Part shown: positions 1 through 59,300 of the stretch, in pieces
How positions within the stretch are numbered: the stretch's first letter is position 1
Layout of the letters: every line of letters starts with the position of its first letter
Notes under the pieces: model-generated
What the model was told of the DNA's origin: nothing
What the model saw: only the letters and a program-made list of their open reading frames with translations
Databases searched by the model: none
Position numbers and translations under genes: made by a program
NCBI GenBank assembly: GCA_003142185.1
Contig: PLOR01000106.1
Coordinates: 62,001-126,000, forward strand
Direction: 5' to 3'
Length of the DNA stretch: 64,000 bases
Source: Bryobacterales bacterium
Lineage (GTDB): Bacteria; Acidobacteriota; Terriglobia; Bryobacterales; Bryobacteraceae

Positions 1-2
1 CC

Positions 3-245
3 GCGCTCTCTTATTGGGCGTCGATGCGCCTGCTTCGCCTGGGCCCAAACGCCGCCGGCCCGATTGCCGCGGAGTTTTCCAGCCAAGCCACTGCTCTGGC
101 GCGCCCCGGCCAGGAGTTGTTCCGCGCCCGGGCGCTGCGAGCCACGGAGTTCTTCGGGCAAGCTCTCAGCGAGCCGGACTACGACTGGCTTGCCGGCCAG
201 CCGGACACGCTGACGGACCCGCTGGTCCTGCGCCCGGATTTGTGA
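3..245 (+). CDS. Partial hypothetical protein (C-terminal part)
   Basis: The frame is open from the left edge, so the start lies outside the window; an internal ATG at 24 is the first methionine seen. The visible 80 residues have no cysteine, membrane segment or motif I recognise, and end with PLVLRPDL. It sits 38 bases before the next rightward frame and may be co-transcribed with it. I cannot name a family. Codon use is GC-rich at third positions like its neighbours, which is the main reason to accept it. Confidence 0.4.
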   Translation, partial: ALSYWASMRLLRLGPNAAGPIAAEFSSQATALARPGQELFRARALRATEFFGQALSEPDYDWLAGQPDTLTDPLVLRPDL

Positions 246-283: not shown

Positions 284-1150
284 ATGGGGCCCACTACACC
301 AACCGCGGCTCCCCCGGTAACCGCTGAATACACGAGCGCTCTGCAGCCGCCGAAGTCCAACCTGCCGCCGGCCGAGTCCAGCTATCGATTCACCCGCGCG
401 ACCGACGGAAAAACGCGCGTGGATTCCGGTAAGACTTCGGTGATCTCGGACCCGGCAGCCGGACAGACGATTCTGCTGGACCACGCGAAGAAGACGGCGA
501 TGATCGCTCCTCAACCAGCGCCACAAATTCCCGGCATGCCGCAGATGCCGCACCTGGCGCCTCCGGGAATGCCAGCCGCGCCGCAGCCTCCCGCTATGCA
601 GGTGCAGGATTTGGGAAAAAGCGTCCTGCAAGGGCACGAGGTGGAGGGGAAACGCTACGTGATTCCTCCGCCGCCAAAGCCGAAAGCTCCCCTAATGCCG
701 AGCGCTTCGGCAGGTCAGGCGCCAGCCATGCCGAAACTCCCGCAAGCGCCTGGGATGCCCAAGCTTCCCCAGATGGCGGGAGCGCCGAAGCCGCCAAGCG
801 CTCCTCCGGTGCCTGGCGTGGCACCGCCTCCTCCGCCGGCACCTGGAGCACCACCCCCTCCGCCGGCCGCTGGCGCGCCGCCGGCCCGCCAGTTGCCCAC
901 CACGGCGGAAGTCTGGACCAGCCCCAGTATGCAACTGCCCATGCTGACCAAGATGAAGGGAAACTTCGGCCAGCTCACCCAGGTCTGCCATCGCGCCGTC
1001 CCCGGCGAACCACACCCGGCGGCCTTTCAGATTCCACCGGGCTACAAAGTGATTACTCCGCAACGACCGAAGCCACCGGCCATGCCGAAGCCGCCGGCCG
1101 TGCCGAACCTGCCAGCGGCGCCGAAGCCGCCAGCCATGCCGAAGCTGTGA
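284..1150 (+). CDS. Proline-rich protein with a split DUF4412-like core
   Basis: A 288-residue protein. Residues about 30-80 (TRVDSGKTSVISDP, then an ILLDHAKKTAMI stretch), about 109-120 (VLQGHEVEGKRYVIP) and about 208-250 (AEVWTSPSMQLPMLTKMKG) follow the order of DUF4412-type cell-envelope proteins, whose core binds an unknown ligand. Between them lie long low-complexity segments built from PKPPAMPKLP-like units, and another closes the protein. I see no signal peptide at this ATG; an in-frame stop at 266-268 prevents extension, so the protein is either cytoplasmic or has lost its leader. The stop is followed by a pyrimidine-rich repeat and the convergent PAAR-like gene. Function is unknown. 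Confidence 0.55.
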   Translation: MGPTTPTAAPPVTAEYTSALQPPKSNLPPAESSYRFTRATDGKTRVDSGKTSVISDPAAGQTILLDHAKKTAMIAPQPAPQIPGMPQMPHLAPPGMPAAPQPPAMQVQDLGKSVLQGHEVEGKRYVIPPPPKPKAPLMPSASAGQAPAMPKLPQAPGMPKLPQMAGAPKPPSAPPVPGVAPPPPPAPGAPPPPPAAGAPPARQLPTTAEVWTSPSMQLPMLTKMKGNFGQLTQVCHRAVPGEPHPAAFQIPPGYKVITPQRPKPPAMPKPPAVPNLPAAPKPPAMPKL

Positions 1151-1230: not shown

Positions 1231-1275
1231 TCTGTCTTCTGACTTCTGACTTCTGTCTTCCGACTCCCGACTTCC
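1231..1275. repeat. Short pyrimidine-rich tandem repeat
   Basis: Five imperfect copies of a 7-8 base unit (tctgactt / tctgtctt / ccgacttc) lie between the stops of two convergent genes and run up to the stop codon of the PAAR-like gene. It has no hairpin potential, so it is more likely a slippage-prone spacer than a terminator. Confidence 0.5.
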
Positions 1276-1664
1276 TACGGCACTTCTACCGTCATCTCGC
1301 CCGGCGAGGTGAACGTGATGACCCCGCCCCAGATGCACATCAACTGGGAAACGTTGTCCAAAGCTGGGAAGTTGCCGAGCAGGTCCGTGACCGCGCCTGG
1401 AACCCACGGCGCGGGCGTTGCCGGAATGCAGGGCATGGGAGTGAGCACACCCAGAGCCGCGGCGGTGGCGGCGGCCACTACGGGGTTCGACGGCGACATG
1501 CACATCCCAAACGGCATGATGTTCACCATGGGAATGTGATCCATGATGTTGGCGTCGGGCACCATATTCGTGAAAACCTTGTTGGTGGGCAGTACCACCA
1601 GGGAACTGGGCGCCACCCCGAATGTGCATGCCATCATGGCTCCCATACAGACCTGCATCGGCAT
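1275..1664 (-). CDS. PAAR-like DUF4280 spike-tip protein
   Basis: A 129-residue protein made almost entirely of one DUF4280 (PAAR-like) domain. Family features visible are two early cysteines (C6, C13), the NIMPFGMC block (C55), PC at 78-79, a W-P-G turn near 87-90, and MCIWGG (C110) followed by the closing strand FTSPGEM. DUF4280/PAAR proteins cap the spike of type VI secretion or extracellular contractile injection systems and carry effectors; that is family knowledge. Here no tube, sheath or baseplate gene is visible, so the partner apparatus must be encoded elsewhere. The ATG at 1664 has a perfect AAGGAGG six bases upstream. It lies downstream of, and on the same strand as, the kinase and small protein, with a 160-base gap. 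Confidence 0.8.
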   Translation of the reverse strand: MPMQVCMGAMMACTFGVAPSSLVVLPTNKVFTNMVPDANIMDHIPMVNIMPFGMCMSPSNPVVAAATAAALGVLTPMPCIPATPAPWVPGAVTDLLGNFPALDNVSQLMCIWGGVITFTSPGEMTVEVP

Positions 1665-1824: not shown

Positions 1825-2262
1825 TCACTCCAGCGACGATCCATCCCACTCGTGCCCCGCGTCGGGGTAGAACGTCACACCGGTGCCGCAAGCTACCAGC
1901 CATCCGCCCGGAACCTTGGCTCGCGCCACGGCATAGACGCCTGCGTCCAGCCGCTCAAACTTCAGTTTGGCCTCTTTGGCGCCCGGTGCGGTGGATGGTC
2001 CCGATTCCACCAGTGCTGGAGCCACTGCTGGCGCGGCGGCCGACGCGGCAGCCTCATCCGGCCTGGTAGCCTCCAGAAATGTTTCGCGGCGCACCGAATA
2101 CGGCTCGCCCAGGTAGCGAAACTTCTCGCGATCGCGATCTCTCCCCATTGACTCAACCAGCGCGCCGAAGGGTATCGTCACTTCCGGCCCGGCGAGTGGC
2201 GCTCCTGTCCGCTCGTGGAGTTTGGTGGCTTCGATCCTTTTGTTCAACGATATTTTGGCCAA
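1825..2262 (-). CDS. Hypothetical protein with SH3-like N-terminus
   Basis: A 145-residue soluble protein of unknown function. Residues 1-60 (GPEVTIPFGALVES, then FRYLGEPYSVR) look like a small beta-barrel module; 66-95 is an alanine/proline linker; the C-terminus (FERLDAGVYAVARAKVPGGW, then TFYPDAGHEWDG) looks like a second beta domain. The start is TTG and not ATG: a strong AGGAGG lies four bases upstream at 2267-2272 and no other start fits. It begins 26 bases after the kinase stop, so the two genes are almost certainly one transcript. A role as kinase substrate or adaptor for the PAAR-like protein is only inference. Confidence 0.65.
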   Translation of the reverse strand: MAKISLNKRIEATKLHERTGAPLAGPEVTIPFGALVESMGRDRDREKFRYLGEPYSVRRETFLEATRPDEAAASAAAPAVAPALVESGPSTAPGAKEAKLKFERLDAGVYAVARAKVPGGWLVACGTGVTFYPDAGHEWDGSSLE

Positions 2263-2288: not shown

Positions 2289-3947
2289 TTACTTCGCATC
2301 TTTCGCGCAGCGAAATCCCACCCTAAGATCCTTCCAGCGTTCGGGGACGGCGTTCGAATCCCAGATCGCGTTGTCAACCAGGGACTCCCAGGCGGACTCG
2401 CCCCGGATCATGTACCAGGCTTCGCCGGGCTGCATGGGCGGCTTCAGGGTCTTGAAGGGACTCGGGTCCGAGGGAGGCGCACGCCGTTTGTCCACCAACT
2501 CCCAGGCGTTGCCGACCATCTGTAAGGCGCCGTATGGACTGGCGCCCGATGGAAAGCTGTCGACCGGCCGCAGCAGATCGGCGCTGTCCGGCAGGAACTT
2601 CCCGCTATTGTTCGTATTGGCACGCGAGATTTCGCTCACGTTGCCCCACGGATAAGTGCGTCCGTCGGTGCCCCGCGCAGCCTTTTCCCACTCCAGGTCG
2701 TTCGGCAGCCTCTTGCCCGCCCACCTGGCGAATTCGCGCGCGTCATCGATGTTCACAAATACCACCGGAAGGTTCGGCTGGTTGCCGGGAAAGTGCTCGG
2801 GAAGCGGCCGGCTCGTCGCCTGGCAGAACTGGCTATAAGCGGCATTGCTCACTTCGGTCTTGTCTATGTAATAGGCGGGAAGGGACGCAACCTGCTTGTT
2901 CTCCCCAAAACGGAATTCCCCGCTCGGCACCAACACCATCTCGCCGGTGGGAGTGGAGATGGTCTTAGGCAGTTCCACCACCTTGGGCGCAGCCGCGGGC
3001 TTGAAAGCGAAATATCCGCCGATCATCCCTATCGCCAGCAGCACGGCCAAACCGGCCAGGAGCACAGGCGTACGGTTTTTTCGCGGCGCGGGGGAAGCGG
3101 CCGGGCGCTCCGCTGCTGGTGTCTCTCCAGACAGGCTGGCGATCATGCGCTCCAGGTCGGCGATGATGGGAGCGAAGCCCTGCGGCCGTTCCGCGGCCAC
3201 CTTGGCGTTGCAGGCCGACACCAGTTGGATCACCGGTTGGGGCACACCCGCACTCTGCAACGGCGCCACGTCCAAGGGGACATTCAAGATGCTGTAGAAG
3301 ATCCGATCCACCGAATCCGCCACGAAGACTTTCTGCCCCGTCAGCAGTTCATATAGCAGGACCCCGAAGGCATAGACATCTACCAGGCCGGTGAGTTGCT
3401 CTCCCCGCACCTGTTCGGGCGCCATGTAGTAGGGCGTCCCGAGCACATAGCCCGGCTGCGTGCGCGAGAGATCTTCGCTCTTGGCAATTCCGAAATCCAT
3501 CAGCTTGACCACGCCGGCGGTGTTGATGTGAACGTTCTCCGGCTTGATGTCGCGGTGGATGATTCGGTTCTTGTGGATGAAATCGAGAGCGCGGGCGATT
3601 TGCAGCGCGATTTGCAGTTTGCTGCGCAGGTCGCCCGTATGGCCGTTCTTGATGGCGTGCCGCAGGTCTTCGCCCTGCAGGAACTCCATCACCATGAACA
3701 GGCCCATCTCGTCGTCGGTACCGAAATCGTAGATGCTGATGACGTTTTCGTGGGTTACCTTGGCGGCGGTTTGCGCTTCCGCCAGGAAGCGGTCGCGGGC
3801 TTCGGGATCCTGCGATGCCGGCTCGACCAGGATTTTAACCGCCACCGTGCGTCCGATAACCGTATCGAAGGCCTTGTAGACATGCGACATCCCACCACCG
3901 AGGAATTCTTGCAGCTCGTACTTGCCGAGGCGGGCGGGCAGTTGCAT
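2289..3947 (-). CDS. Membrane Ser/Thr kinase with SUMF1-like C-terminal domain
   Basis: A 552-residue protein. The N-terminal PknB-type kinase spans about 8-275: glycine loop LGGGMSHVY (16-24), VAVK lysine K38, HRDIKPEN with D133 and N138, DFG at 151-153, APEQ at 176-179. All catalytic residues are present, so it should be active. A proline/alanine linker is followed by one membrane segment near 300-322. Outside the membrane is a formylglycine-generating-enzyme-like (SUMF1) domain with YIDKTEVSNAAYSQF, RLPNDLEWEKAARG, YPWGN, MVGNAWELV and a closing VGFRCA; this fold often serves as a ligand-binding module in bacteria. It heads a leftward unit with the small protein and the PAAR-like gene. It probably senses an extracellular cue and phosphorylates cytoplasmic partners. 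Confidence 0.9.
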   Translation of the reverse strand: MQLPARLGKYELQEFLGGGMSHVYKAFDTVIGRTVAVKILVEPASQDPEARDRFLAEAQTAAKVTHENVISIYDFGTDDEMGLFMVMEFLQGEDLRHAIKNGHTGDLRSKLQIALQIARALDFIHKNRIIHRDIKPENVHINTAGVVKLMDFGIAKSEDLSRTQPGYVLGTPYYMAPEQVRGEQLTGLVDVYAFGVLLYELLTGQKVFVADSVDRIFYSILNVPLDVAPLQSAGVPQPVIQLVSACNAKVAAERPQGFAPIIADLERMIASLSGETPAAERPAASPAPRKNRTPVLLAGLAVLLAIGMIGGYFAFKPAAAPKVVELPKTISTPTGEMVLVPSGEFRFGENKQVASLPAYYIDKTEVSNAAYSQFCQATSRPLPEHFPGNQPNLPVVFVNIDDAREFARWAGKRLPNDLEWEKAARGTDGRTYPWGNVSEISRANTNNSGKFLPDSADLLRPVDSFPSGASPYGALQMVGNAWELVDKRRAPPSDPSPFKTLKPPMQPGEAWYMIRGESAWESLVDNAIWDSNAVPERWKDLRVGFRCAKDAK

Positions 3948-4087
3948 CAGAGTGAGAGAAATCTTTAGCAGCTCCGATCACTCGGGGCTTCCAGTTGCAT
4001 GCGATTTTCGATACTATACCATAACAGCTTTCGGCCGCGGACGATGCAGGATGAAAGTGGTCGAAACGCATGACGGAGAGAAAACGG

Positions 4088-4930
4088 ATGCGAAGATTAC
4101 TGGCCCTGGTGACGGCCCTTGGTGCAACTGCCGGCATGGCGCAACAGCCGCCGCCGGCGGAGGGCGCACGGGAACTTTTTTTCGCCGGCGCCGCGCCGAA
4201 GGACGAATTGCCTCCGGTCCGCCAATCGGCGCCGGCCAAGGCAGCTCCGGCAACCGTACCGCCAGCCTCGCAGCCGGGGCGCGCCACGTCCGGCTCGGCG
4301 GCGGCGCTCGGCGCGGTGCACCTGGGGCTTCGGTATAACCTGCTGCTGGTGAGCGCGCGCGGCGACCGCGGCCAGCCGGTGGATCCGGATCGCAACTTCC
4401 GCAAAGGCGACTGCGTGGCCGTCGAGCTGGAGGCGAACCGGTCCGGGTATCTGTATGTGCTGTCGAAACAGTCGAGCGGCGACTGGGTTCCGCTTTTTCC
4501 CACGCCGGAACTGTCGGATCAGAGCAATCGGATCGACCCAGGCCGGATCGTTCGGACGCCGAAGCACGCTTGCTTTGAAATTGACGACCCGCCCGGGACA
4601 GAGACCTTGTTCGTGGTGCTGTCGAGGGACCCCCGCGACATTGACGAATTGTCCGAAAGCATCAAGGGTCCGGGGGATCGGCCGCAACCATCGTCAGGCC
4701 CGACCCAGATTGCCGCCTCCGGACGAATCAATTCCGCCGTGGGACGGATTACCGAGCAGTATGGCACGCGCGACCTGCCGTTCCGGCAGGTTGCCCAGCC
4801 GGCTTCGGCGCAGAAGGCATCTGCGGGACCGGCGGTCAAGAATGAGCCGCAGCATGCGGTGTACGTGGTGAACGGGTCCGGCAAGCCGGCAGCTACCCTG
4901 GTGACCAAGGTGGAGATCCTCCACCGTTAA
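4088..4930 (+). CDS. Secreted DUF4384 protein
   Basis: A 280-residue protein with an N-terminal signal peptide (MRRLLALVTALGATAGMAQ) and a proline/alanine linker. The DUF4384 domain follows at about 75-205: FRKGDCVAVELEANRSGYLY, VPLFPTPE, then a FEIDDPPGTETLFVVLS strand pair. DUF4384 is a beta-rich domain often linked to caspase-like peptidases in bacteria, and such a gene lies just downstream on the other strand. I chose ATG 4088 over ATG 4070 because GGAG sits nine bases before it and the leader then has a proper charged N-terminus. The C-terminal 75 residues are unassigned. It is divergent from the kinase gene (about 140 bases apart) and convergent with the TPR gene. Confidence 0.75.
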   Translation: MRRLLALVTALGATAGMAQQPPPAEGARELFFAGAAPKDELPPVRQSAPAKAAPATVPPASQPGRATSGSAAALGAVHLGLRYNLLLVSARGDRGQPVDPDRNFRKGDCVAVELEANRSGYLYVLSKQSSGDWVPLFPTPELSDQSNRIDPGRIVRTPKHACFEIDDPPGTETLFVVLSRDPRDIDELSESIKGPGDRPQPSSGPTQIAASGRINSAVGRITEQYGTRDLPFRQVAQPASAQKASAGPAVKNEPQHAVYVVNGSGKPAATLVTKVEILHR

Positions 4931-4960: not shown

Positions 4961-6136
4961 CTACTTCTGTTCGCCTTGGGAAGCCGGCGGCGCGGCAGGC
5001 CAGCCCGAGATCTTCGACGGGTCGGAAACGACCGTTAATGCAAACGGGCTCTTGACGAAGGAATCGACGGCCCCCTCGAATTCCAGAACGGTTCCGGCGG
5101 CGGCATCGTTCGGGAACTCGATAGTCAGTTTGAGCACGATCTCCGCCTGGGCCGGGTCGATGACGCCAATCGTCAGCTCGTTCGGCTTGCCGGGCGGGTC
5201 GGCCTTGATCAGCACGCCCTTCAATTTGGGAAGCGGGCTGTTGTGCAGGGTTTCCGCAAAGTATTTGTCGCCGTCGGGAGCTTCCAGCTTTTGCCGCATG
5301 CGGACCCACGCCAACAATTGCGGGTTGGTGCGGCTGAGTTCCTCGTCCTGCTTGCGTAGGGCTGCCGCCGCCACCGATTCGATGTCAAAACCCACCGGCG
5401 GAAACGGCGCTGCGGCGGCGGCGGTGCGCAGTTGATCCAGGCCGCTCGAATTGCCGTGGTAAGAAGTGTAAAGGCGCTCCAGAACCTCGCCGAACTGGCG
5501 CCGCAGCCCGTCGGGCAGTGCCCCCGAATCCTGGTAAGCCGAAGCGCGCGCAAGCTGCCACAGCGCGGGCACCCGCTTGTCCGGCTGCTGCTCGGTCGCG
5601 AGTACCGTGCCCAGCCAGCCCGATATCTCGGCGGCGGTGGGATTCACTTGCAAGCACTTTTGGAACTCCTCTTCGGCCTGCGTGTATTCGCTCCGTTGCC
5701 AATGAATCCAGCCCAGCGTGCGGTGGGCCATCGATTCGACACCGCCGGCCGGTTTCGGGTCCGCAAGCAATTGACGGCTGGCCTTCTCGCCCACAGCCAA
5801 TTGCTCGGGTAAGGCCGACTTTTCTTCCGGCAGCAATAGGGTGAACCAATACGCGCCAACCGGGTTGTCCGGCTGGGCCGCCAGCATCTCCCCGGCGACG
5901 CTGAGCGTGTGCGGGCTGTCTCCCAGCGCTTGATAGGTTGCAAGGTACAATTCCAGGCGGGCCTGCCCGAGTTCGCTCTTGGGGTATTCGCTCTTCCACT
6001 GGTCGAGCAACCCCAGCCTCTTTTGAGGCGAGGTCTCGGCCCGGATGTTCAGAACCAGGTCGTATTCCTTGCGGTCGGTCCAGTTGGCCGCGGTGGCGCA
6101 AATCGTCCACAGCAGCGTGAGAGCGAGATATTTCAT
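4961..6136 (-). CDS. Secreted TPR protein, last gene of the caspase operon
   Basis: A 391-residue protein starting MKYLALTLLWTICATAA, a short signal peptide. TPR-like helices fill about 30-190, with recognisable units such as AHRTLGWIHWQRSEYTQAEE followed by a second repeat; the C-terminal 130 residues form a beta-rich region without a family I know. The ATG at 6136 overlaps the stop of the caspase gene by ATGA, so it should be translated by coupling. The frame is open farther upstream but that extension is antisense to nothing useful and overlaps the caspase gene out of frame, so I reject it. Likely exported and part of a complex with the two proteins encoded upstream. Confidence 0.75.
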   Translation of the reverse strand: MKYLALTLLWTICATAANWTDRKEYDLVLNIRAETSPQKRLGLLDQWKSEYPKSELGQARLELYLATYQALGDSPHTLSVAGEMLAAQPDNPVGAYWFTLLLPEEKSALPEQLAVGEKASRQLLADPKPAGGVESMAHRTLGWIHWQRSEYTQAEEEFQKCLQVNPTAAEISGWLGTVLATEQQPDKRVPALWQLARASAYQDSGALPDGLRRQFGEVLERLYTSYHGNSSGLDQLRTAAAAAPFPPVGFDIESVAAAALRKQDEELSRTNPQLLAWVRMRQKLEAPDGDKYFAETLHNSPLPKLKGVLIKADPPGKPNELTIGVIDPAQAEIVLKLTIEFPNDAAAGTVLEFEGAVDSFVKSPFALTVVSDPSKISGWPAAPPASQGEQK

Positions 6137-7914
6137 GGCCGCTTCACCTTGAATGTTTGCGTGGAGAGTGGCGTCACTTCCAGATCCTGCCGGTTGACCA
6201 CTTTCCCTTCGTCCACGGTGCGGATTTCGTATTTTCCAGTGGGAAGCTTGAGCTTGGTGGGAAGCACTACCTGTTTGCCCGCGAACACCACCGGGGTTTC
6301 GCCGGCGGGACCGTCGAACTGCACGTAGCCGAACTCCTCGGCGGCGTCGGGGCGGAGCCGCAGGTTCCTGGTATCTCCAGTGGGAACCACTTCCACATGA
6401 AAGATGGCGTTGTTCACGGCTGCGGCTTGCGCGTCGTCTGCGTGGTCGGCCGCCGTCTCGGCGGTAGCCTGCGCGGTGGTCTCGGCGGCCGGCGCCGGTG
6501 TCGCAGTCGCGGCCGACGCGACCAGCACCGGCATCGGAACCTCCATCTTCAGGTCCTTCGTCCACCGCGTGATATCGACCTCCGCGGTTTCGAGGTGCCG
6601 CTTCCCGGCATCCCAATCGGGAACTCCAAAGTGCATGCCGCTGAAGACCTCCTCGATGGGAGGCGGCTGGGGCACGCCTGACTGAACCTCCGTGGCGGCC
6701 TCGGGCGATACCGCGGCAAGCTGTTTTAACATCAAGTCGGCGGTCTGAACGGCCTCGGAGGTTCCACGGAGACGCATGGCTTTGAGCAGTACGATGGCTT
6801 CCGGCAGATGGTCCTGCAGCAGGTAGCTGTTGACGCCCTGCAAAACGGCATTCATCGCGAACGGGTCCAACTTCAGGGCTTGTTCGTAAGAGTTGGCCGC
6901 GGCCGGGTAGTCGCCAGCCTCAAAGCGCGCCTGGGCATTCTTGCGGGCAGTCAGGTAGGGCAATCTCTCTTTCGCCAGCGTTTCGAGGGCTCCGCCGGGC
7001 TTCCTCTGCAGCACCTGATTGACCAGGTCGATGGCCTCTGCCCACTCTTCGCGCTGCTCCCGGACGCGGGCGTCCTCCATCCATTTCTCGGCCACGGTGG
7101 AATCGCTATCGGAGTCGCCGTTCGGGGGCATGTGGAAGTAGAACCGGCTGGTGAGGTTGGAGGTGGTCCAGGGCGTTTGCCGGCCTTCGGTCGCCTGCGA
7201 GACCCGCTTCTTGACACGCGTAAACACCTCGTTGATTTCCACGGTGAGCGCGGATTGCGAGATGTAGTCGGCCAGCGCTTCGGTGAACCAACTGTCGCGG
7301 CCGTTCGGATTGTCCGTGGCGGTCTGGCCAGGACCCGTGGAGAAGGCCACGAACGATTCACTCGGAGCATCCTGCGGATTAGCCAGGCCGGCCTCGAGCG
7401 AGTACTTCTCAGCTACCGGATTGCTCCGGCAGGCGTCCAGAATGACGATGTTCCGCTTGGCCCGTTTGCGTTTCAGCTCATCGAAAATCCGGGCTACCGA
7501 CATGCAGGCGAACTTGGCGGCCGATATGGTCGCAACCGAGGGAAAGTCCACGGGCACCAGAAAATTTTCGTTTTCGATCTGGACGCCGTGGCCGGCAAAA
7601 AAGAACAGGGCGGTGTCATCGGGGCCGAGCTTGTCGAGGAATTCGCCGATGGCGCGATCCATGTCCGCTTTCCTGGCGTTCTCCAGTGTGACGGTCAGGA
7701 AGCCCGCGCTCTTGAGCGCCTTGTCCATGGCGCGCGCGTCGTTCACGGCGTTCTTCAGCGGGCTGATCGAATAGGCATCGTTACCGATGATCAACGCCAG
7801 GCGCCTGCCGGTTTCCTGAGCGTGGAGCGCCGGCGCGAGGGCCGCGAGAAACAGCAGACTGCAATTCAGCCAGGCAGACTTGCCCCGCCCGGTCGATCGA
7901 ACGATTTGCATCAT
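6133..7914 (-). CDS. Secreted caspase-like peptidase (C14) with TPR and beta C-terminus
   Basis: A 593-residue protein. After a signal peptide (about 1-32) comes a p20-like caspase domain from ALIIGNDAY (40-48), with catalytic histidine H109 in FFFAGHGVQ and catalytic cysteine C162 in VILDACRSNP, followed by SFVAFSTGPGQTA. Both dyad residues are intact. TPR helices cover roughly 275-390, and the last 90 residues form a PEGA/Ig-like beta domain (FDGPAGETPVVFAGKQVVLP). Two consecutive ATG codons (7914, 7911) are possible; the first overlaps the upstream stop by ATGA. Bacterial caspase homologues act in proteolytic signalling or cell death; an exported one is harder to place. Likely works with the 800-residue protein upstream and the TPR protein downstream. 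Confidence 0.88.
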   Translation of the reverse strand: MMQIVRSTGRGKSAWLNCSLLFLAALAPALHAQETGRRLALIIGNDAYSISPLKNAVNDARAMDKALKSAGFLTVTLENARKADMDRAIGEFLDKLGPDDTALFFFAGHGVQIENENFLVPVDFPSVATISAAKFACMSVARIFDELKRKRAKRNIVILDACRSNPVAEKYSLEAGLANPQDAPSESFVAFSTGPGQTATDNPNGRDSWFTEALADYISQSALTVEINEVFTRVKKRVSQATEGRQTPWTTSNLTSRFYFHMPPNGDSDSDSTVAEKWMEDARVREQREEWAEAIDLVNQVLQRKPGGALETLAKERLPYLTARKNAQARFEAGDYPAAANSYEQALKLDPFAMNAVLQGVNSYLLQDHLPEAIVLLKAMRLRGTSEAVQTADLMLKQLAAVSPEAATEVQSGVPQPPPIEEVFSGMHFGVPDWDAGKRHLETAEVDITRWTKDLKMEVPMPVLVASAATATPAPAAETTAQATAETAADHADDAQAAAVNNAIFHVEVVPTGDTRNLRLRPDAAEEFGYVQFDGPAGETPVVFAGKQVVLPTKLKLPTGKYEIRTVDEGKVVNRQDLEVTPLSTQTFKVKRP

Positions 7915-10352
7915 TTCACCAGTGTGGAAGGTGAGTTCGCCAGGAACGTCACCTTGCGGTTGCGGTTGTCCAGGGTCGGGTCGGTGGCCGCCTCCGCCGA
8001 TACCAGCCGATTCGCCATGTAGTTGTATTTGATGTGCGAGGGCTTGCCCTGGCCCTGAATTTCTTCCGATACCAGCCGCCCGTCTTCATATTGCATTGTG
8101 CGCTCGTAGTTCTTGGTCTTCCCCAGATAGCCGCGGATAGCGGTCAGTTGCATCCCGTTCCATTCGAATTCGAGTACCTGCTCGGCGGGGGAGCCCGCGG
8201 GGCCGGTCAGCTCCTGGGCGCGGCTGATTCGTCCGCTATCGTCGTAGGCGATCCGGAAATAGTAAAGCTTCTCCCATACGAACGGGTTGAAGAACGGGTT
8301 GCCTGCGATGGCCACCGCCAGGTTCTTTCCGGTGATGCGCTGCACCGCGACAGGGTCCACAAACGGGCTGTTGCGCACGAGTACGGTAGAGCGTCTGTAC
8401 GCTTCGTCGGGATCGGCGGGTACGGGCGGCCGGGCTTCTTCGCCATCGGTGGCCCACACCACCTGCGGCACATGGTCTTCGTAGCCGAACGTAATGGTTT
8501 TCTCGCTCGTCGCGTGAGCGGCGTTTTCAAAGGTGGGTCTAACGGACTTCAACCGTTCGCCATCCCATTCGAACGCCACGTGAAACTTGTTGGACCCGTC
8601 GATGTGGTCGATACGCGGCTGGAAGGCGAGGCTGACGGGGGAATAGAACACCCCCTTGGGCAGTTTCTCTCCGGAGAGCCAGTTGGGGTCGCCTCCGGCG
8701 GCGCCGGCGGGTATCGCGACGGAAGCCAGCAGCCGGCTGACTAGTGTCCGTTGCTCGGTGTTGGCATCCAGCGTGTCGGAGGCTTCCAGGTAGTGTGTGA
8801 GACGGTCGTGGGCCAGTTTGGGCGCCCGCTCGATCAGTGCCGACACGCCCGCATAATACAACAGGTCGGCGTCCTCGGCATCCATCCTCAAACCTTGGGC
8901 GGACAGTTGATGGGCCAAGCCGAAATTCCCTTCGGACCAGGCCGCCTGCAGCTTGGTTTTCAAATTTTTCAGCGACGCATTCAGGTTGAACAGAAGTTGA
9001 TTGCGCAGCGCCTCGGCCGGTGCGCGCTCCTCGTCGACGGCATGCAGGTCGTACGTATCGAGCGCCGCCAGGGCTTCGGCAATGCGATCCTCCGCCGCCA
9101 GGATATCGGCCTCGGCGTACCACACCTTCAAGGTCGTGTTGCTGATGCTGCCCCCCGGCTGGGAAGTTCGCAACGCGGTTTCGGCATCCTGCACGCTCTT
9201 CAGGGCTTCCTCGAGCTTCTTCTCGCGCTTATTCTGGTCGGCGAAGTAGAGAGCGCGATCTACGGTGCTCTGCGGGCCGGCGCCGAGCTTGGTCCGTTTT
9301 GCTTGCAGGTCCATGGCGTTCCGCCGCGAATACTCGGTCCACGCCTGCATGGCGCGCTCGCGCAACGCGGAGTCCGATGGCTTGCGCAGACCGGCCAGTA
9401 GGAACTCGCGGTACGCATCGCCATAGTCACCCTCACTCTGGCGTGCCGTGGCGAGCTTCAGGTGCAGTTGGAGGCTGCCCTGCAGGGCCTGCCGGTGATC
9501 GTTCGCCATCTCCGGGAAAGCCTGCTGGTAACGCGCCAGGTCGCGGTCGCCTAAAAGGAACGCATCCCACTGGGCAGCCGCGGCGAAGGCCTTCTCGACC
9601 GCGATCTTGCGATCGAGCCATGCCTTGCGCGTGATTAGAAGCTGCCGCAGTTTGTCCTGCTCCAGCGACTTGGGGTACGCCGATTGCGACAGCGTGGCGA
9701 AGTCGAGCCCCTGGTTCAGAACGTCGATGCCGCCCACGCCGTTTTCGAAGGCTTCATATCGGCTGCGCATCCCCTCTCCGACATACTTTTCGAGCGGAGC
9801 CATCGCCGGATCGGTGCCGTAAGCCTTCACCGCGGCGGACATCAATTCGACTTGGGTGGGAAAACTCTTGCCCTTCCCGCCGATCAACTGCAACGCGCCG
9901 GTGTCCTTGCACAACGCGGCCAGATCCGCCACTCCTGCCGGGAGGAACGCCACGAAGCTGTCGAAAGGAACCTCGGTTCCAGCCTTGTCGGAGGAGGACT
10001 GTTTGTATACGATCCTGGCTTCCTTCCAGGCGCCCGCCGGGTCGTCCGGTGCGTTCTTAGGCAGGCCTTCGGGAAGCAGGTAGTTGGCGTTGCCGGAATC
10101 GTACTCCAGCAGGACGCCGGCGTCGCCGTCTTTGAGCAGTGTGCCTGCCAGGCGAGCCGAAGACCGTTTGGAACCTGCGGTGCCGGTGGGCTGGCTGCCC
10201 AGGCTAAGAGCTTTGTCTTTGCCATTGACCGCGATCGATACCGCGTCGGTGAACTGGAGACCATGTTCGGACCGGACGACCAGGATGCCGGCGCGTGCGG
10301 ATACGCACAAAACCAGGCACGCCATCACACGGTGTAAAGGGAGCCTCTGAAT
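7911..10352 (-). CDS. Large secreted TPR protein heading the caspase operon
   Basis: About 813 residues, unknown family. After the leader (LPLHRVMACLVLCVSARA) come a beta-rich N-terminal domain (to about 120), helical TPR-like repeats (about 220-540) and a C-terminal beta region with short repeats typical of YD/RHS-like strands (FEWNGMQLTAIRGYLG, MQYEDGRLVSEE). The start is uncertain. GGAGG at 10361-10365 (minus strand) lies eight bases before an in-frame ATT at 10352 that gives a normal signal peptide; an ATG at 10325 gives a leader with almost no charged N-region; a TTG at 10397 lacks a convincing ribosome site. The stop overlaps the caspase ATG by ATGA. Probably an exported partner of the caspase. 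Confidence 0.72.
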   Translation of the reverse strand: MQRLPLHRVMACLVLCVSARAGILVVRSEHGLQFTDAVSIAVNGKDKALSLGSQPTGTAGSKRSSARLAGTLLKDGDAGVLLEYDSGNANYLLPEGLPKNAPDDPAGAWKEARIVYKQSSSDKAGTEVPFDSFVAFLPAGVADLAALCKDTGALQLIGGKGKSFPTQVELMSAAVKAYGTDPAMAPLEKYVGEGMRSRYEAFENGVGGIDVLNQGLDFATLSQSAYPKSLEQDKLRQLLITRKAWLDRKIAVEKAFAAAAQWDAFLLGDRDLARYQQAFPEMANDHRQALQGSLQLHLKLATARQSEGDYGDAYREFLLAGLRKPSDSALRERAMQAWTEYSRRNAMDLQAKRTKLGAGPQSTVDRALYFADQNKREKKLEEALKSVQDAETALRTSQPGGSISNTTLKVWYAEADILAAEDRIAEALAALDTYDLHAVDEERAPAEALRNQLLFNLNASLKNLKTKLQAAWSEGNFGLAHQLSAQGLRMDAEDADLLYYAGVSALIERAPKLAHDRLTHYLEASDTLDANTEQRTLVSRLLASVAIPAGAAGGDPNWLSGEKLPKGVFYSPVSLAFQPRIDHIDGSNKFHVAFEWDGERLKSVRPTFENAAHATSEKTITFGYEDHVPQVVWATDGEEARPPVPADPDEAYRRSTVLVRNSPFVDPVAVQRITGKNLAVAIAGNPFFNPFVWEKLYYFRIAYDDSGRISRAQELTGPAGSPAEQVLEFEWNGMQLTAIRGYLGKTKNYERTMQYEDGRLVSEEIQGQGKPSHIKYNYMANRLVSAEAATDPTLDNRNRKVTFLANSPSTLVK

Positions 10353-16018: not shown

Positions 16019-19000
16019 TCACTCCGGTGGCTTTCGCGCGGCGCTCAAGTCTGGACGGGCGGGGAGGCTTGCCAATGCATCGTCCAGCGCCGCGGTTTGA
16101 ATCGGTTTGGAAATATACGAGTCCATCCCGGCCTGCTGGCACTTTTCGCGATCTCCCTTCATGGCGTGGGCGGTCAACGCGATGATCGGGATGTGCGCTC
16201 CATTTCCCGACTCCCGGGCCCGGATGAGGCGGGTGGCTTCATATCCGTCCATCTCCGGCATCTGAATGTCCATCAGAATGCAGTCGAAGCCATCCTGGCG
16301 CCACGCCGCCAGCGCGGCGGCTCCGGTCCCGACCACGGTCACGCGATGACCGCGCTTCTCCAGGAGGGTCCGGATGAGACGCTGATTGACCGCGTTATCT
16401 TCCGCGACCAGGATGGAAAGGGGTCGGCGCAGGGACTGCTCCGCTGGCGATTGGCCACATGGGGCGATAGCGGGTTGCTCGCCCCCAGCCGGGGCTTGGC
16501 CCGGTGGGATCGGTGCGGTGATGAAGAAGGTGCTGCCCTGGCCCTCGGCGCTTTCCAGCCACATTCTTCCCCCCATCATGGCGACGAGTTTCCGGGAGAT
16601 GGCCAAACCGAGGCCGGTACCTCCAAAACGCCGGGTGACGGACCCGTCAGCCTGCCGGAAGGGCTGGAAGATGACCTCCCGTTGTGGCTCGGGGATGCCA
16701 ATGCCTGTGTCGGAGACGGCAAACTGGATCTGGCGCGGCACCTGAGCGTGATTGGAGCCAGCCGCAGCAGCGTCCTGTTCCGGAGCCAAGAATACGCGCA
16801 CTGCGATGCCGCCAGCCGCGGTGAATTTCACTGCGTTGCCTAACAGATTGAGAAGAACCTGGCGCAGCCGGTATGGGTCGCCCCGGACCCACTCCGGCAC
16901 TTCATTATCGATCTGAATCGAGGTCGCGAGGCCTTTTTCGGCGGCTAGCGACTGAACGGAACCGAGAGCCGCCTCGACGCACTTGCGAACCGAGAAATCC
17001 AACGATTCCAGTTCGAGCCGGCCCGCTTCCACACGGGAGAAGTCCAGAATATCGTTGATGACAACCAGCAGGTTCTCGGCCGACGAACGCACGGCTTCGT
17101 TGTGTTCCCGCTGGAGGCCGGTAAGCTCGCTTTCCGCCATCAGTCCGGCGAACCCCAGGATGCCGTTCAAGGGTGTCCGGATCTCATGACTCATGTTGGC
17201 CAGAAACTCGCTCTTGGCCCGGCTGGCCTGCTCCGCGGCGTGCTTGAGCAGTTCTTCCTGTTGTAACTTCTTGCTGATCACGGCGGTCTGTAACACGACC
17301 TTGTGTCGCAGTATCGCCACCCAGGACAGGACGGCGAGCAGCAAGGCCGCCATGGAGCCCAGCACGGCCAGCAGGCGGCCGGGAGTCCACCATGGCGCGG
17401 ACCGGACCACGGCGATGTCCCCCGCGCTGCGCAGAACGAGGCTGAACGACTTCGGGATGCGATAGGCGAGATTCCTTTCGGCTGCAACGGAGCAGACCCC
17501 GGTCACACGGACGATGCTGCCCCGGTCCAGCAGTGGTATCCGCCCGTGATCCAAGGTGGCGTTGAACAACTTACCGCCAACTTGGAGCATCACGTCGTTT
17601 TGGGTGGTGCTTCTGAGCTGGTCCACGACGGCGGCATCGATGCTGACCAACCTGGAATCGTAGGCGCCTTCCAAGGCTTCGTCCACGGTTATGGACGGCG
17701 GTGACGGCGCGGGTCCCCGTTCGACGAGCGCGACCCGCGCGTCCCGCATTTCCGGGCTGAAGGAGCCAGAGTGCCCGAAGCCGAGCACGTCGACCACATC
17801 GCCGGGGTGGAGATCCATGCGCGCATGGTTGACGATCTTGACGCCGGCCCCGCTATCTTCGACGTACGACGGGCCGGAGGGGCTGGCCAGAGTGACGACG
17901 CCGCGGATTCGCGTGCGGTGCCCCGGCGAATCGGCGAAGGAGAAGCGGAGGAGTTCATCAATCGGCCGCGGCCGCAGTGCGGCCGGATCCGGACCGGGCT
18001 CCAGCAGACGCACGAAATCGGGCGAGGGCACGTAGATCTGAACGCCGACGATTTGGCGCCGGGCGTTGAATATCGTTCCGCAAACACCCTGGACCTGGAC
18101 GCGGCTATCCGGCGGCGGCAGGGGGCGCGCATCTGGATTGTGGATGAGGAGCACGTACAGGTAGTCTCCCCACTGCAGCGAAACGACGTCTTCCAATGTG
18201 CTGCCGCGCTGGGTCTCGACACTTTGCACAACGCCTTCGGTCTGAACCCAGGCGCTGTCCATCCTTCCGGAGAACAGTTCATCGAAAGCGACTGGCGCCG
18301 GCGGCGGCATGGAAGATGAGGAGACGCGTTCCACCGAAGCACTGAAAATGACGGGCGCGAACTGGCCCGGCGCGGTGACGCCGGATACATCTACCAGATC
18401 GCCCGCCTGCACTTTCAACTCGCCGATACGGGGAGCGGACACGTAACTGGGACCGGTCTGATCCTGCACAAAAAACACTGCGGTTGCGGGATTAATGTAG
18501 GTCACCGTGGCCCGGACGCGAACCGGAACACGCCTGCCAGCCTCTTCCGGGCTGAGGGCGTGAACTTCGGCCACCGTGGTGATGATGTGGCCCTTATCGG
18601 CGGGATGGGCCGGGGGATTCCCCAGCGCCAGTGTGGCGTCGGTGATTTTGAGCTCGCCCCCATCGAGTTCGGCAAAGCCGGACACATCGACCACCTGTCC
18701 GATTGGCAACACTGCATTGGAGGCCTGGCAGATGCGGATGGAGCCGCTGCCATCCTCAAATCGCAGCCCCTCGCGCACGCCGTCGGATCGAATGCTGCCA
18801 TGAAGGTGGAGCACGCGCTCGGTCAGCGAATTCCCAGGCAAAGCAGCCACCTCGCGAATGGTTTGAACGGGAATGCCTTGGGGAGCCGGCGCGAGGACTT
18901 CGACGTCCGTGGCGCTAGGGATCAACACCCGCACGCGGGCCATGCGGCCGTAGATGTCACGGCTCAGATTCGCCACGGCGCGGACGCGGATGCGGGAGCC

Positions 19001-19576
19001 GACTGCGCCGTTGAGATCCGGCAGATCCGTTGAGCCGATGTAAGCCTCGAACACCATTGCGCCGGAGCCCATTCTAATGACGGAGTTGCCCGCGCGGTCC
19101 TGGTGCCAGAAGCGAAGAACGCCTTCCACGCTTACATAGCGGAAGCCGGCGCGACCCGCGACGAGGTCCGCGACCTGGATGGAGAGCGCGTGCGGTTCGT
19201 GGACACCCTCCAAGAGCCTGACTTCGCTGGCGACAACCGTGGGCGCGGCCCCCCCCTCAGTCACTTCGCCGACCACCTCCACCACGTTGCCCGGCCTGGG
19301 GTCAAGGTGGAGGAAGGGAAGAGCCACACGGGCGGCGCCGGTATCGTCTTCCAGGAACATCAGATTGGTGGTGGGATCCGAGAGGGTGACCCAGCCTTTC
19401 AGGTGCACCGGCAGGCGGTGGCCGGAGACCTGAAGGGGCAACGCCGCGACCTGCGAAATGCGATCGAACGGCGCCCCGACGTGGCGGCCGATGCAGGAGC
19501 CGGCGGCGAGCACGGCAACCGCGACAAAACCGGCGTAGAAGCACTTTGTTCGTTCCGACATGAGCCGATCGGTCAC
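16019..19576 (-). CDS. Membrane hybrid histidine kinase with OB-like repeats and receiver
   Basis: A 1185-residue protein. An N-terminal hydrophobic segment (about 12-28) exports about 670 residues made of repeated OB-fold-like units; phrases such as GNVVEVVGEV, GQVVDVSGFAEL, GDLVDVSGVTA and GDVVDVLGFG mark at least five copies. A membrane helix at about 705-725 (LLAVLGSMAALLLAVL) leads to the HisKA box with H797 (NMSHEIRTPLNGILG), the ATPase domain (NLLGNAVKF, DTGIGIP, GGTGLGLAISRKL) and a receiver (ILVAEDNAVNQRL, ILMDIQMPEMDG, K in YISKP). The GTG at 19576 overlaps the stop of the PEP-CTERM-like gene (GTGA); an ATG at 19561 is the alternative. It is coupled to that exported protein, which may be its ligand or target. 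Confidence 0.9.
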   Translation of the reverse strand: MTDRLMSERTKCFYAGFVAVAVLAAGSCIGRHVGAPFDRISQVAALPLQVSGHRLPVHLKGWVTLSDPTTNLMFLEDDTGAARVALPFLHLDPRPGNVVEVVGEVTEGGAAPTVVASEVRLLEGVHEPHALSIQVADLVAGRAGFRYVSVEGVLRFWHQDRAGNSVIRMGSGAMVFEAYIGSTDLPDLNGAVGSRIRVRAVANLSRDIYGRMARVRVLIPSATDVEVLAPAPQGIPVQTIREVAALPGNSLTERVLHLHGSIRSDGVREGLRFEDGSGSIRICQASNAVLPIGQVVDVSGFAELDGGELKITDATLALGNPPAHPADKGHIITTVAEVHALSPEEAGRRVPVRVRATVTYINPATAVFFVQDQTGPSYVSAPRIGELKVQAGDLVDVSGVTAPGQFAPVIFSASVERVSSSSMPPPAPVAFDELFSGRMDSAWVQTEGVVQSVETQRGSTLEDVVSLQWGDYLYVLLIHNPDARPLPPPDSRVQVQGVCGTIFNARRQIVGVQIYVPSPDFVRLLEPGPDPAALRPRPIDELLRFSFADSPGHRTRIRGVVTLASPSGPSYVEDSGAGVKIVNHARMDLHPGDVVDVLGFGHSGSFSPEMRDARVALVERGPAPSPPSITVDEALEGAYDSRLVSIDAAVVDQLRSTTQNDVMLQVGGKLFNATLDHGRIPLLDRGSIVRVTGVCSVAAERNLAYRIPKSFSLVLRSAGDIAVVRSAPWWTPGRLLAVLGSMAALLLAVLSWVAILRHKVVLQTAVISKKLQQEELLKHAAEQASRAKSEFLANMSHEIRTPLNGILGFAGLMAESELTGLQREHNEAVRSSAENLLVVINDILDFSRVEAGRLELESLDFSVRKCVEAALGSVQSLAAEKGLATSIQIDNEVPEWVRGDPYRLRQVLLNLLGNAVKFTAAGGIAVRVFLAPEQDAAAAGSNHAQVPRQIQFAVSDTGIGIPEPQREVIFQPFRQADGSVTRRFGGTGLGLAISRKLVAMMGGRMWLESAEGQGSTFFITAPIPPGQAPAGGEQPAIAPCGQSPAEQSLRRPLSILVAEDNAVNQRLIRTLLEKRGHRVTVVGTGAAALAAWRQDGFDCILMDIQMPEMDGYEATRLIRARESGNGAHIPIIALTAHAMKGDREKCQQAGMDSYISKPIQTAALDDALASLPARPDLSAARKPPE

Positions 19577-51445: not shown

Positions 51446-51611
51446 TTTCAGGAGGCTCCAAGAGGCAAGTCTTAACCTGGGATTTCCATTTCGGACTCAC
51501 AGGTCGAGTTCAGTATACACCAAGCCACCATCCCTTGATCCTAAATAGGGGTGCGACGCTGTATCTTTCCGGCCTGATCGCCGGCGTGCTGCGCTGGTGG
51601 GGAGTTCGCGT

Positions 51612-57590: not shown

Positions 57591-58316
57591 TCAGTGCGAA
57601 CGTTCCATCTCGATCGCCCGCGGGAAGAGAACGTTGTTTTCCAGATGGATGTGCTGGTGCAAGTCGGCTTCGAATGCCGCCAGCGCTCTATAAAGCGTTT
57701 GGAAGCTGATGCAGGCATCAGGCGGCGCGGCATATCCGTTGCTGATCTGGCGCATGTTGCGTAGCGCGCTGCCGGCCCCATCGTGCTCGTTCATCATCAT
57801 CGCGACCGGATTGCGCACGCTGCCGAAGGGAGGCGGCAGCACAGGCTCTTTCGCTACCACGGCCTCTTCCATGCGTAGGATGTACGGGAACAGAACCATC
57901 TCCTCCTTCATCAGATGAGTAGTCAACTCTTCGGCGAGCCCGCTGAAAACCTCGCGCAGGTGCGGCAACTCGGGATGATTCCCGCCGTGCACCGAGCACA
58001 CCTTGTCAAACAGCGGGCCCAGCCTGGCGATTTCCTCGCGCGTATAAACGTGGTGCGTGCCCTGGATGTGCGCCAGCAGCTCGGAAAGAGGCTCGGCTTG
58101 CCAGTTTCGGGCTGGCGGGGCAGCGGACGCGAGACGGCTCGCCTCCGCGAGTGAATCCGCTACCTGGTTGACGGATGCATGAGCCGCCTGGCACGCCTGT
58201 TCCAAAGTTTGACCACCGCCGCAACAGTAGTCTATGCCCAGCTTTTCAAACACGCGGGTTGCGCCCAGGTTCCCCAGCGCCAGTTCGCCTACCGTCTTTT
58301 CCGTCATAACACTCAT
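57591..58316 (-). CDS. RIC-family di-iron protein for Fe-S cluster repair
   Basis: A 241-residue protein. The N-terminal ScdA domain (GELALGNLGATRVFEKLGID, YCCGGGQTLEQAC) is followed by a hemerythrin-like di-iron domain with metal ligands in HHVYTREEIARL, HGGNHPELPHLR, HLMKEEMVLFPY, NEHDGAGS and HIHLENNVLFPRA. YtfE/ScdA proteins repair clusters damaged by nitric oxide or peroxide. ATG 58316 has GAGGAG seven bases upstream. A TGAC-N4-GTCA site lies 53 bases upstream, so a Crp/Fnr-type regulator, presumably the one encoded next door, should control it. Confidence 0.92.
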   Translation of the reverse strand: MSVMTEKTVGELALGNLGATRVFEKLGIDYCCGGGQTLEQACQAAHASVNQVADSLAEASRLASAAPPARNWQAEPLSELLAHIQGTHHVYTREEIARLGPLFDKVCSVHGGNHPELPHLREVFSGLAEELTTHLMKEEMVLFPYILRMEEAVVAKEPVLPPPFGSVRNPVAMMMNEHDGAGSALRNMRQISNGYAAPPDACISFQTLYRALAAFEADLHQHIHLENNVLFPRAIEMERSH

Positions 58317-58368
58317 CGTTATTCTCCTCGATGTATCGAGCGTACTCCGCGTGGGCATGCCGCGCCTA

Positions 58369-58380
58369 TGACTTTTGTCA
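58369..58380 (-). promoter_or_regulatory. Crp/Fnr-type binding site before the RIC gene
   Basis: TGACAAAAGTCA, a perfect TGAC-N4-GTCA dyad, matches the FNR/DNR half-site pattern apart from the outermost bases. Centred about 58 bases before the start codon, compatible with activation from about -41 of a start site near 58333. Confidence 0.6.
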
Positions 58381-58422
58381 CAGGGAGATGCAAACTCCGG
58401 CGGGGTCGCGATGGGGCGCAGC

Positions 58423-59166: not shown

Positions 59167-59300
59167 TCGGGCCGGTGGCTCCTAATCCTGGGTCATCCTG
59201 GCGCGGCCTCTGAATGGATGGCGCAGGCGCAGGACGGGTTCGCGCGCGCCCTGTTTTCATTCGGTGTCCCGAATCGGTGGCGTGTCGCATCTCGAAATAG

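What the first reader, a model, noticed from the sequence alone, without database searches (positions are those of the whole stretch)
4961..10352. Coupled export operon built around a caspase-like peptidase
Seen: three genes joined by two ATGA overlaps, all with signal peptides; the middle one has an intact His/Cys caspase dyad (H109, C162). A DUF4384 gene converges on it and a SUMF1-fused kinase plus PAAR-like gene lie next to it. Known: DUF4384 and bacterial caspases often co-occur. Inference: an extracytoplasmic proteolytic signalling or contact-dependent module with its own surface partners; I know no named system with this gene set.
Basis: partly seen in the sequence, partly recalled or inferred. 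Interest (0 to 1): 0.62.

Follow-up and report, generated by a model that had tools for sequence, protein, structure and literature searches.

The report
Exported caspase operon tied to T6SS
A three-gene operon in soil Acidobacteriota encodes an apparently exported, apparently active caspase-type protease with two scaffold-like proteins, and it travels with a kinase that is wired into these bacteria's type VI secretion (contact-killing) machinery, so it may be a protease switch on that weapon.

Summary
Three genes (P828, caspase P593, P391) overlap twice by ATGA, have hydrophobic export-like N-termini, and the caspase has its His/Cys dyad. The set is real and inherited: it occurs in 15 of 200 genomes of the order (13 with all three genes on one contig), the dyad is intact in 17 of 17 trio caspases, and trees give one origin each for trio caspase and trio P391.

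The neighbouring kinase (kinase–TM–non-catalytic FGE-like domain) is a T6SS gene in this order: it lies within 6 kb of tssM in 44 of 75 genomes that have both (0.2 pairs expected). All 15 trio genomes carry TssF or TssM, against 109 of 185 others. But the trio shares a contig with TssF/TssM in only 2 genomes.

Best reading: a periplasmic caspase held by TPR scaffolds that feeds envelope signals to the T6SS kinase, a proteolytic variant of the TagR/RtkS/TssW–PpkA pathway. Linkage is shown; export, substrate, interaction and direction of control are inferred. New variant of a known kind.

The parts
7911..10352 (-). P828 (813 aa from ATT 10352; 828 aa from TTG 10397): export-like N-terminus, N-terminal beta domain, TPR-like helical solenoid, C-terminal beta sheet (about residues 580-803 of the 813)
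   Evidence: pLDDT 85; full-length homologues only within the order in the samples searched
6133..7914 (-). caspase (peptidase C14), 593 aa: export-like N-terminus, caspase domain 37-259 with H109/C162, TPRs about 275-390, PEGA-like C-terminus
   Evidence: ATGA overlap with P828. PEGA matched in 7 of 17 aligned members, not in the window's own copy at E<=0.001
4961..6136 (-). P391: export-like N-terminus, TPR solenoid, C-terminal beta domain; paralogue of a near-universal protein family of the order
   Evidence: ATGA overlap with caspase
4070..4930 (+). DUF4384 protein, convergent with the trio
   Evidence: a DUF4384-type gene neighbours the trio in 9 of 13 loci that could be judged
2289..3947 (-). 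Ser/Thr kinase (HRD, DFG present), one hydrophobic TM-like segment (about residue 295), FGE-like domain without the catalytic Cys pair; the T6SS-linked kinase of this order
1825..2262 (-). 145-aa ORF of unknown family between kinase and PAAR-like gene
   Evidence: no Pfam match
1275..1664 (-). DUF4280 / PAAR-like protein, probable T6SS spike-tip protein
   Evidence: PF14107 E=4.1e-32; NCBIfam T6SS_IglG E=5.2e-16, below its cut-off
284..1150 (+). proline-rich 288-aa ORF at the end of the VgrG-side gene run
   Evidence: (no Pfam match)

Best explanation
The operon makes a periplasmic caspase held by two dedicated TPR scaffolds (P828, P391), and works as the extracytoplasmic arm of the T6SS kinase that lies beside it. 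In the model, an envelope or contact signal is collected by P828, P391 and DUF4384 and lets the caspase cut a periplasmic regulator (or clear an inhibitor). That changes the state of the kinase's FGE-like periplasmic domain, and the kinase then licenses T6SS assembly or position by threonine phosphorylation, as PpkA does downstream of TagR, RtkS or TssW. SHOWN: gene content, conservation, dyad, common origin, kinase-T6SS linkage, co-occurrence of trio with T6SS. INFERRED: export, complex formation, protease activity, substrate, direction of control.
For: Trio kept as a unit: 15 of 200 order genomes in 10 genera, 13 with all three genes on one contig (genera). Pairwise distances of the three proteins correlate at r=0.94-0.95 over 12 genomes, 0 of 2000 permutations as high (shared species history alone could give this). 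Trio caspases form one group (98/97; the dead G152 copy lies inside it) and trio P391s one group (100/100). Dyad intact in 17 of 17 trio caspases. T6SS core in own island: TssM, TssL, TssK, a TssB/C-like gene, TssA, TssE, TssF, ClpV-type AAA, VgrG, TssG. Kinase is T6SS-linked: within 6 kb of tssM in 44 of 75 genomes with both; 45 match pairs seen (G181 counted twice), 0.19 expected; directly next to tssM in the same direction in G118, G163, G164, G175, G081, G152 and G169. Kinase genomes with TssF or TssM 78 of 82, others 46 of 118. Trio genomes with TssF or TssM 15 of 15, others 109 of 185, p=0.0006 uncorrected for phylogeny. Trio genomes with kinase 14 of 15. A second caspase type with two DUF4384 genes abuts the kinase after tssM in G118, G175, G164 and G081; in the own genome it lies on the tssM side of the island with one TssB/C-like gene between; its dyad is intact in 7 of 7 read. 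Precedent for periplasmic or outer-membrane input to PpkA: passages of PMC10482370 and PMC12607579.
Against: The trio shares a contig with TssF or TssM only in G000 and G072. In G121, G109, G066, G148, G152 and G089 no T6SS structural gene was found in the flanks read, about 2.5 to 46 kb a side. Caspases as a class were not clearly enriched near TssF: 3 seen, 1.4 expected, two of the three being the trios of G000 and G072, on a truncated list. Only 15 of the 124 genomes with a T6SS marker have the trio, so it is at most an optional regulator. G066 and G148 have neither kinase nor DUF4384 beside the trio. Related P828 loci pair with proteins that lack a caspase domain (own genome C37, G131, G154) or carry a dead one (G152 C74), so P828 does not always serve a protease. 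No interaction, cleavage or localisation was tested.
Confidence: 0.42

Rival explanations
1. Immunity: the exported caspase with its TPR scaffolds captures and cuts toxins that neighbours inject into the periplasm, and the FGE-like domain of the kinase is a toxin-sensing or immunity-type domain.
For: Sits with T6SS genes in G000 and G072; export-like N-terminus would place it where incoming effectors arrive; FGE-like proteins are reported as a family of T6SS immunity proteins (only the title of Lopez et al. 2021 seen, in the reference list of PMC9612521). TPR spiral adaptors that feed a periplasmic protease exist (LbcA-CtpA, abstract of PMC8764530).
Against: Inherited as one group with no sign of rapid exchange, whereas immunity genes generally turn over fast (general knowledge); PADLOC finds only a generic caspase model and kinase-domain models. 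No effector gene was identified beside it, but none was specifically searched for.
Confidence: 0.2
2. A general envelope-stress or housekeeping proteolysis module that merely tends to lie in T6SS-bearing genomes; the T6SS link is phylogenetic habit.
For: Trio lies away from T6SS genes in six of the eight genomes whose flanks were read at length; P391 belongs to a family matched in 196 of 200 genomes, and in the 20 loci read outside the trio two recurrent neighbour genes (19 and 18 loci) look by eye like a sodium:solute symporter and an amino-acid permease; co-occurrence test not corrected for phylogeny.
Against: 15 of 15 trio genomes have a T6SS marker against 109 of 185; kinase or DUF4384 lies next to the trio in 11 of 13 loci that can be judged, and that kinase is tssM-linked.
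Confidence: 0.25
3. Programmed cell death or abortive infection by an orthocaspase.
For: Caspase domain with intact dyad; PADLOC caspase model E=9e-19.
Against: Export-like N-termini (12 trio caspases inspected by eye); NCBIfam EACC1-type caspase model well below cut-off (76.9 of 140 bits); no death-effector domain such as NACHT or gasdermin among the neighbours scanned with Pfam, apart from sub-cut-off ATPase-type matches of ClpV; conserved TPR partners.
Confidence: 0.06
4. The caspase is itself an exported toxin or a toxin-processing peptidase, perhaps T6SS cargo.
For: Caspase-like domains act as releasing peptidases and sometimes as toxins in polymorphic toxin systems (PMC3482391, passages); PAAR-like gene 4.5 kb away; P828's model gives weak Foldseek matches to T6SS Rhs proteins.
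Against: Here the caspase domain is N-terminal and no toxin domain follows it; Sec-type N-termini; no PAAR/VgrG/Rhs fusion; no VgrG or PAAR match in the flanks of the six other genomes read at length.
Confidence: 0.05

Closest known systems
T6SS threonine-phosphorylation pathway (TagQRST/RtkS/TssW - PpkA - Fha - PppA)
   Same: Membrane-type Ser/Thr kinase with a probable periplasmic domain, encoded next to tssM; exported-looking partner genes nearby; an FHA+SLT protein near the module in G072
   Different: Kinase and FGE-like domain are fused; the partners are a caspase and TPR proteins, not TagQ/R, RtkS or TssW; no phosphatase or FHA target was identified in the own genome (not specifically searched). 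That TagR is FGE-like is recalled; it was not found in the library
Bacterial caspases (metacaspase/orthocaspase, peptidase C14)
   Same: PF00656 domain, AGHG/AGHA and DACR motifs with intact dyad; TPR is among the commonest fusions of the family (PMC3501461, passages)
   Different: Export-like N-terminus and operon-bound to two conserved TPR proteins; closest PDB sequences over the caspase domain are MALT1 paracaspases (best E=1.3e-10)
LbcA-CtpA periplasmic protease-adaptor pair
   Same: A TPR spiral adaptor serving a periplasmic protease (abstract of PMC8764530); LbcA (7rqf) is row 42 of P391's Foldseek list, E=1.6e-3
   Different: Different protease class; the LbcA match is one of many TPR matches and shows no relationship; no lipobox was established for P391 or P828
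YS pseudo-orthocaspases
   Same: The paralogous locus G152 C74 has H to Y and C to S, the same pair reported for pseudo-orthocaspases (PMC6426788 abstract and passages)
   Different: The window and all 17 trio caspases keep His/Cys
Caspase-like peptidases of polymorphic toxin systems
   Same: Secreted caspase-like domains in bacterial conflict gene neighbourhoods (PMC3482391, passages)
   Different: There the domain is fused into the toxin; here it is a separate TPR-fused protein with its own operon partners

Membership tests
Peptidase C14 (bacterial caspase) | Pfam caspase domain over cut-off | tested here: met
   149.5 bits against 21.4
Peptidase C14 (bacterial caspase) | His/Cys catalytic dyad | tested here: met
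   H109, C162; 17 of 17 trio caspases
Peptidase C14 (bacterial caspase) | proteolytic activity | not testable with these tools
   needs assay
T6SS (the island) | core genes tssA,B/C,E,F,G,K,L,M, clpV, vgrG present together | tested here: met
   Pfam matches, on about C42:32-59 kb; Hcp and the separate tssB and tssC genes assigned by eye/BLAST only
T6SS (the island) | outer-membrane lipoprotein TssJ | tested here: inconclusive
   PF12790 found in 0 of 100 order genomes, 48 of which have TssF or TssM; E. coli control found. Short divergent lipoproteins can be missed
PpkA-type T6SS kinase (window 2289-3947) | Ser/Thr kinase with TM segment and further domain beyond it, encoded in the T6SS locus | tested here: met
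   (TM by hydropathy)
PpkA-type T6SS kinase (window 2289-3947) | phosphorylates Fha or TssL and is needed for secretion | not testable with these tools
   needs bench work
Catalytic formylglycine-generating enzyme | Cys pair near the C-terminus, as in 6muj | tested here: not met
   no Cys opposite the two-Cys stretch of 6muj in the alignment; window has one Cys in its last 110 residues (GFRC); of 14 kinases 10 have one and 4 have two, none as such a pair
Known anti-phage defence systems (PADLOC) | match that identifies a known system | tested here: inconclusive
   caspase model E=9e-19; kinase matches PD-T4-6 models (best 4.6e-77) over the kinase domain only (residues 8-274); P391 a weak Unk_06 match; nothing for P828 or DUF4384
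LbcA-type protease adaptor (P391) | TPR solenoid that binds and activates a periplasmic protease | tested here: inconclusive
   TPR fold predicted (pLDDT 89); binding not tested

The most novel reading that the evidence does not exclude
Type VI secretion in this order (Bryobacterales) is controlled by extracytoplasmic caspase proteolysis: caspase modules (the window's trio, and a second DUF4384-DUF4384-caspase operon beside the tssM-kinase end) cut a regulator when the envelope is disturbed and thereby switch a kinase-FGE fusion that licenses the weapon. It would be a caspase-driven firing switch in bacteria.
Probability: 0.3. Interest if true: 0.8.

Novelty: new variant of a known kind. Interest (0 to 1): 0.6.

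Why it matters
From general knowledge, bacterial caspases are mostly discussed for cell death or phage defence, and few have known substrates. A caspase that looks exported, is inherited with two scaffolds and is tied to the T6SS kinase gives a concrete place to look for a substrate (periplasmic regulators, the periplasmic parts of TssM or of the kinase) and a concrete phenotype (T6SS activity). It would also supply candidate periplasmic input for T6SS control in a phylum for which my one search on its T6SS clusters listed a single review.

Tried and rejected
Reading the trio as T6SS structural genes: rejected, because six of eight trio loci with long flanks read have no T6SS gene there. Reading P391 as trio-specific: rejected, its family is matched in 196 of 200 genomes; the trio copies are a separate group. 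Reading P828 as caspase-specific: rejected. P828 outside the order: in a phylum sample of 297 genomes full-length matches appeared only in the own genome; the other 80 matching genomes hit only the helical TPR part (model positions 264-552). VIA-align rows for P828 and P391 are generic TPR matches and leave the C-terminal sheets untested; absence of other families there proves nothing. The Rhs/YD resemblance of P828 rests on weak Foldseek rows (8qjd, 8qja, 8cp6, 7pq5; TM-scores at or below 0.13); the model range was not printed, so that it concerns the C-terminal sheet is my inference. Literature (open-access library only): no paper holds 'type VI secretion' with 'DUF4384'; with 'metacaspase' 8 listed, with 'peptidase C14' 2 listed, with 'Acidobacteria' and 'caspase' 4 listed. 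Of these PMC9612521, PMC10328246 and PMC3482391 were opened as passages and those passages describe no such locus; the rest were seen as listings only.

Limits of the counts: P828 matched 20 genomes; I sorted them by hand into 15 with the trio and 5 without a caspase (G131, G134, G141, G154, G192). In G171 the P828 copy is cut by the contig end; G122 and G043 are broken by contig ends. Kinase list: 111 genomes matched at E<=1e-60; I kept 96 rows in 82 genomes whose listed match reaches the FGE-like domain and dropped kinase-only rows; rows past the listing were not seen. DUF4384 and C14 lists are cut at the listing limit. The genome search for PF00656 missed the own genome's second caspase, so caspase counts are lower bounds. 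Expected numbers assume 6.3 Mb genomes and ignore contig breaks. 'Loci that can be judged' (13 of 17 trio loci) leaves out G174, G197, G043 and SbA3, cut by contig ends; counted by hand. In one search, 41 caspases were collected and 39 kept (casp2_G000 and casp2_G175 dropped: aligned stretch too short or none). No p-value is corrected for relatedness.

After the filing check I recounted: G171's dyad and the second-type caspases were read, PMC3482391 was opened, and the Cys count, flank lengths, overlap count and PADLOC status were mended; the toxin rival went from 0.04 to 0.05 because; no other odds changed.
Full report
OBSERVATION. The middle protein has a full caspase domain (PF00656, 149.5 bits) with H109 and C162, then TPRs and an end that aligns with PEGA-bearing relatives. 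P391 gives only TPR matches and P828 only one weak TPR-type match. The convergent DUF4384 gene, the kinase-FGE fusion and the DUF4280/PAAR-like gene are confirmed. The first gene's start is uncertain: TTG at 10397 gives 828 aa, ATT at 10352 after GGAGGGG gives 813 aa.

CONSERVATION. In an even sample of 200 genomes of the order (own genome included), P828 matches 20. In 15 of these (10 genera) it goes with a close caspase and P391; 13 show all three genes in the same order on one contig, and G122 and G043 are broken by contig ends. Named records add two more loci (SbA3 and palsa_243); their titles place the set in Bryobacterales/'Candidatus Solibacter' and other Acidobacteriota MAGs. The dyad is intact in 17 of 17 trio caspases. 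Distances among P828, caspase and P391 correlate at 0.94-0.95 over 12 genomes. Trees give one group for 16 trio caspases (98/97) and one for 12 trio P391s (100/100), with largely matching sub-groups. A phylum sample of 297 genomes gave no full-length P828 outside the own genome.

WHERE THE PARTS COME FROM. P391 is a paralogue of a family matched in 196 of 200 genomes. In 20 loci of this family read outside the trio, two recurrent neighbour genes (19 and 18 loci) look by eye like a sodium:solute symporter and an amino-acid permease. P828 also has paralogues whose partner lacks the caspase domain (own genome C37, G131, G154) or has H to Y and C to S (G152 C74), as in YS pseudo-orthocaspases (PMC6426788 abstract and passages). 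So the constant theme is P828 plus a TPR partner, to which, in the trio, an active caspase belongs; the tree fits one origin of the trio caspase.

THE ISLAND. The window starts at base 62001 of contig C42. Before it lie a TssB/C-like gene, TssM, TssL and two TssK genes, ImpE, TssA, TssE, TssF, a ClpV-type AAA protein and VgrG and TssG; VgrG ends about 2.7 kb before base 1. The window's first 10.4 kb is the end of that island. At the other end are two DUF4384 genes and a second caspase with TPRs and PEGA (697 aa); relatives of that caspase form a group far from the trio's (six relatives; the own copy was dropped there), and its dyad is intact in 7 of 7 read.

THE KINASE IS A T6SS GENE. The kinase-FGE gene lies directly next to tssM in the same direction in G118, G163, G164, G175, G081, G152 and G169, and in G118, G175, G164 and G081 the second-type caspase with two DUF4384 genes abuts it from the other side. 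Over the sample, 45 kinase-tssM match pairs in 44 genomes lie within 6 kb, of 75 genomes with both; 0.19 pairs are expected by chance. 78 of 82 kinase genomes have TssF or TssM, against 46 of 118 others. The protein has kinase motifs, one TM-like segment and an FGE-like domain without the Cys pair of the enzyme. This is the layout of PpkA kinases, which take input from periplasmic or outer-membrane proteins (TagR, RtkS, TssW; passages of PMC10482370 and PMC12607579). That TagR is FGE-like is recalled and was not found in the library.

HOW FAR THE TRIO IS TIED TO T6SS. For: all 15 trio genomes have TssF or TssM, against 109 of 185 others (p=0.0006, uncorrected); 14 of 15 have the kinase; kinase or DUF4384 lies beside the trio in 11 of 13 loci that can be judged, the exceptions being G066 and G148. 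Against: the trio shares a contig with TssF or TssM only in G000 and G072; in six genomes with flanks read (G121, G109, G066, G148, G152, G089; about 2.5-46 kb a side) no T6SS structural gene was found; and caspases as a class were not clearly enriched near TssF. I therefore call the trio a T6SS-associated, optional module, not a T6SS component.

STRUCTURE. P391 is predicted as a TPR solenoid with a C-terminal beta domain (pLDDT 89); P828 as a beta domain, a long helical solenoid and a C-terminal meander sheet (pLDDT 85). PDB matches are mostly generic TPR proteins; LbcA, the adaptor of the CtpA protease, is row 42 of P391's list, and T6SS Rhs proteins are among P828's weak matches. The LbcA-CtpA pair (abstract of PMC8764530) is the functional model for a TPR scaffold serving a periplasmic protease.

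MECHANISM. I favour an extracytoplasmic proteolytic input to the T6SS kinase (0.42). An unrelated envelope function (0.25) and immunity against incoming effectors (0.20) are the serious rivals. TssJ was found in 0 of 100 order genomes, 48 of which have TssF or TssM, while E. coli gave a hit, so these T6SSs may use other outer-membrane-side partners; the TPR or DUF4384 proteins are candidates, which is speculation.

VERDICT. The gene set is real and conserved within the order. The combination of T6SS kinase with exported caspase modules was not found in print by the searches and 88 of an open-access library, mostly seen as listings. New variant of a known kind; interest 0.6.

Noticed in passing
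own genome C42:27090-30878 (L110:90-3878): Tandem DUF4384-DUF4384-caspase(TPR, PEGA) operon on the far flank of the T6SS island; the same arrangement recurs in order genomes and abuts the tssM-kinase end in G118, G175, G164, G081; dyad intact in 7 of 7 read.
   Followed up: partly
order-wide sample: TssJ (PF12790) detected in 0 of 100 order genomes although 48 of them have TssF or TssM; the outer-membrane anchor of these T6SSs is unknown.
   Followed up: partly
own genome C37:23277-33568 (L030:2277-12568): 1999-aa kinase with a long repeat-like C-terminus, then a P828 paralogue and a TPR-PEGA-type protein without caspase domain: a second kinase-P828 system.
   Followed up: partly
L029:12387-14207 and L029:14220-15245 (C42:59387-62245; the second runs into window 1-245): Two proteins of unknown family (606 and 341 aa) between VgrG and PAAR, candidates for T6SS cargo or adaptor; no Pfam or NCBIfam match.
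   Followed up: no
window 18500-18581 (-): ARAGORN tRNA-Phe call lies inside the 1185-aa ORF 16019-19576 on the same strand; probably a false positive.
   Followed up: no
window 51597-53846 (+): Trypsin-like peptidase domain fused to a long ankyrin-repeat array.
   Followed up: no
window 57591-61577: ScdA_N-hemerythrin protein, Crp-type regulator and a CLC-CBS channel close together.
   Followed up: no
L044 (G152:C74:161001-181000): Dead (Y/S) caspase whose P391-like neighbour lies about 1.2 kb away on the other strand: caspase death and break-up of the operon coincide in this one locus.
   Followed up: partly
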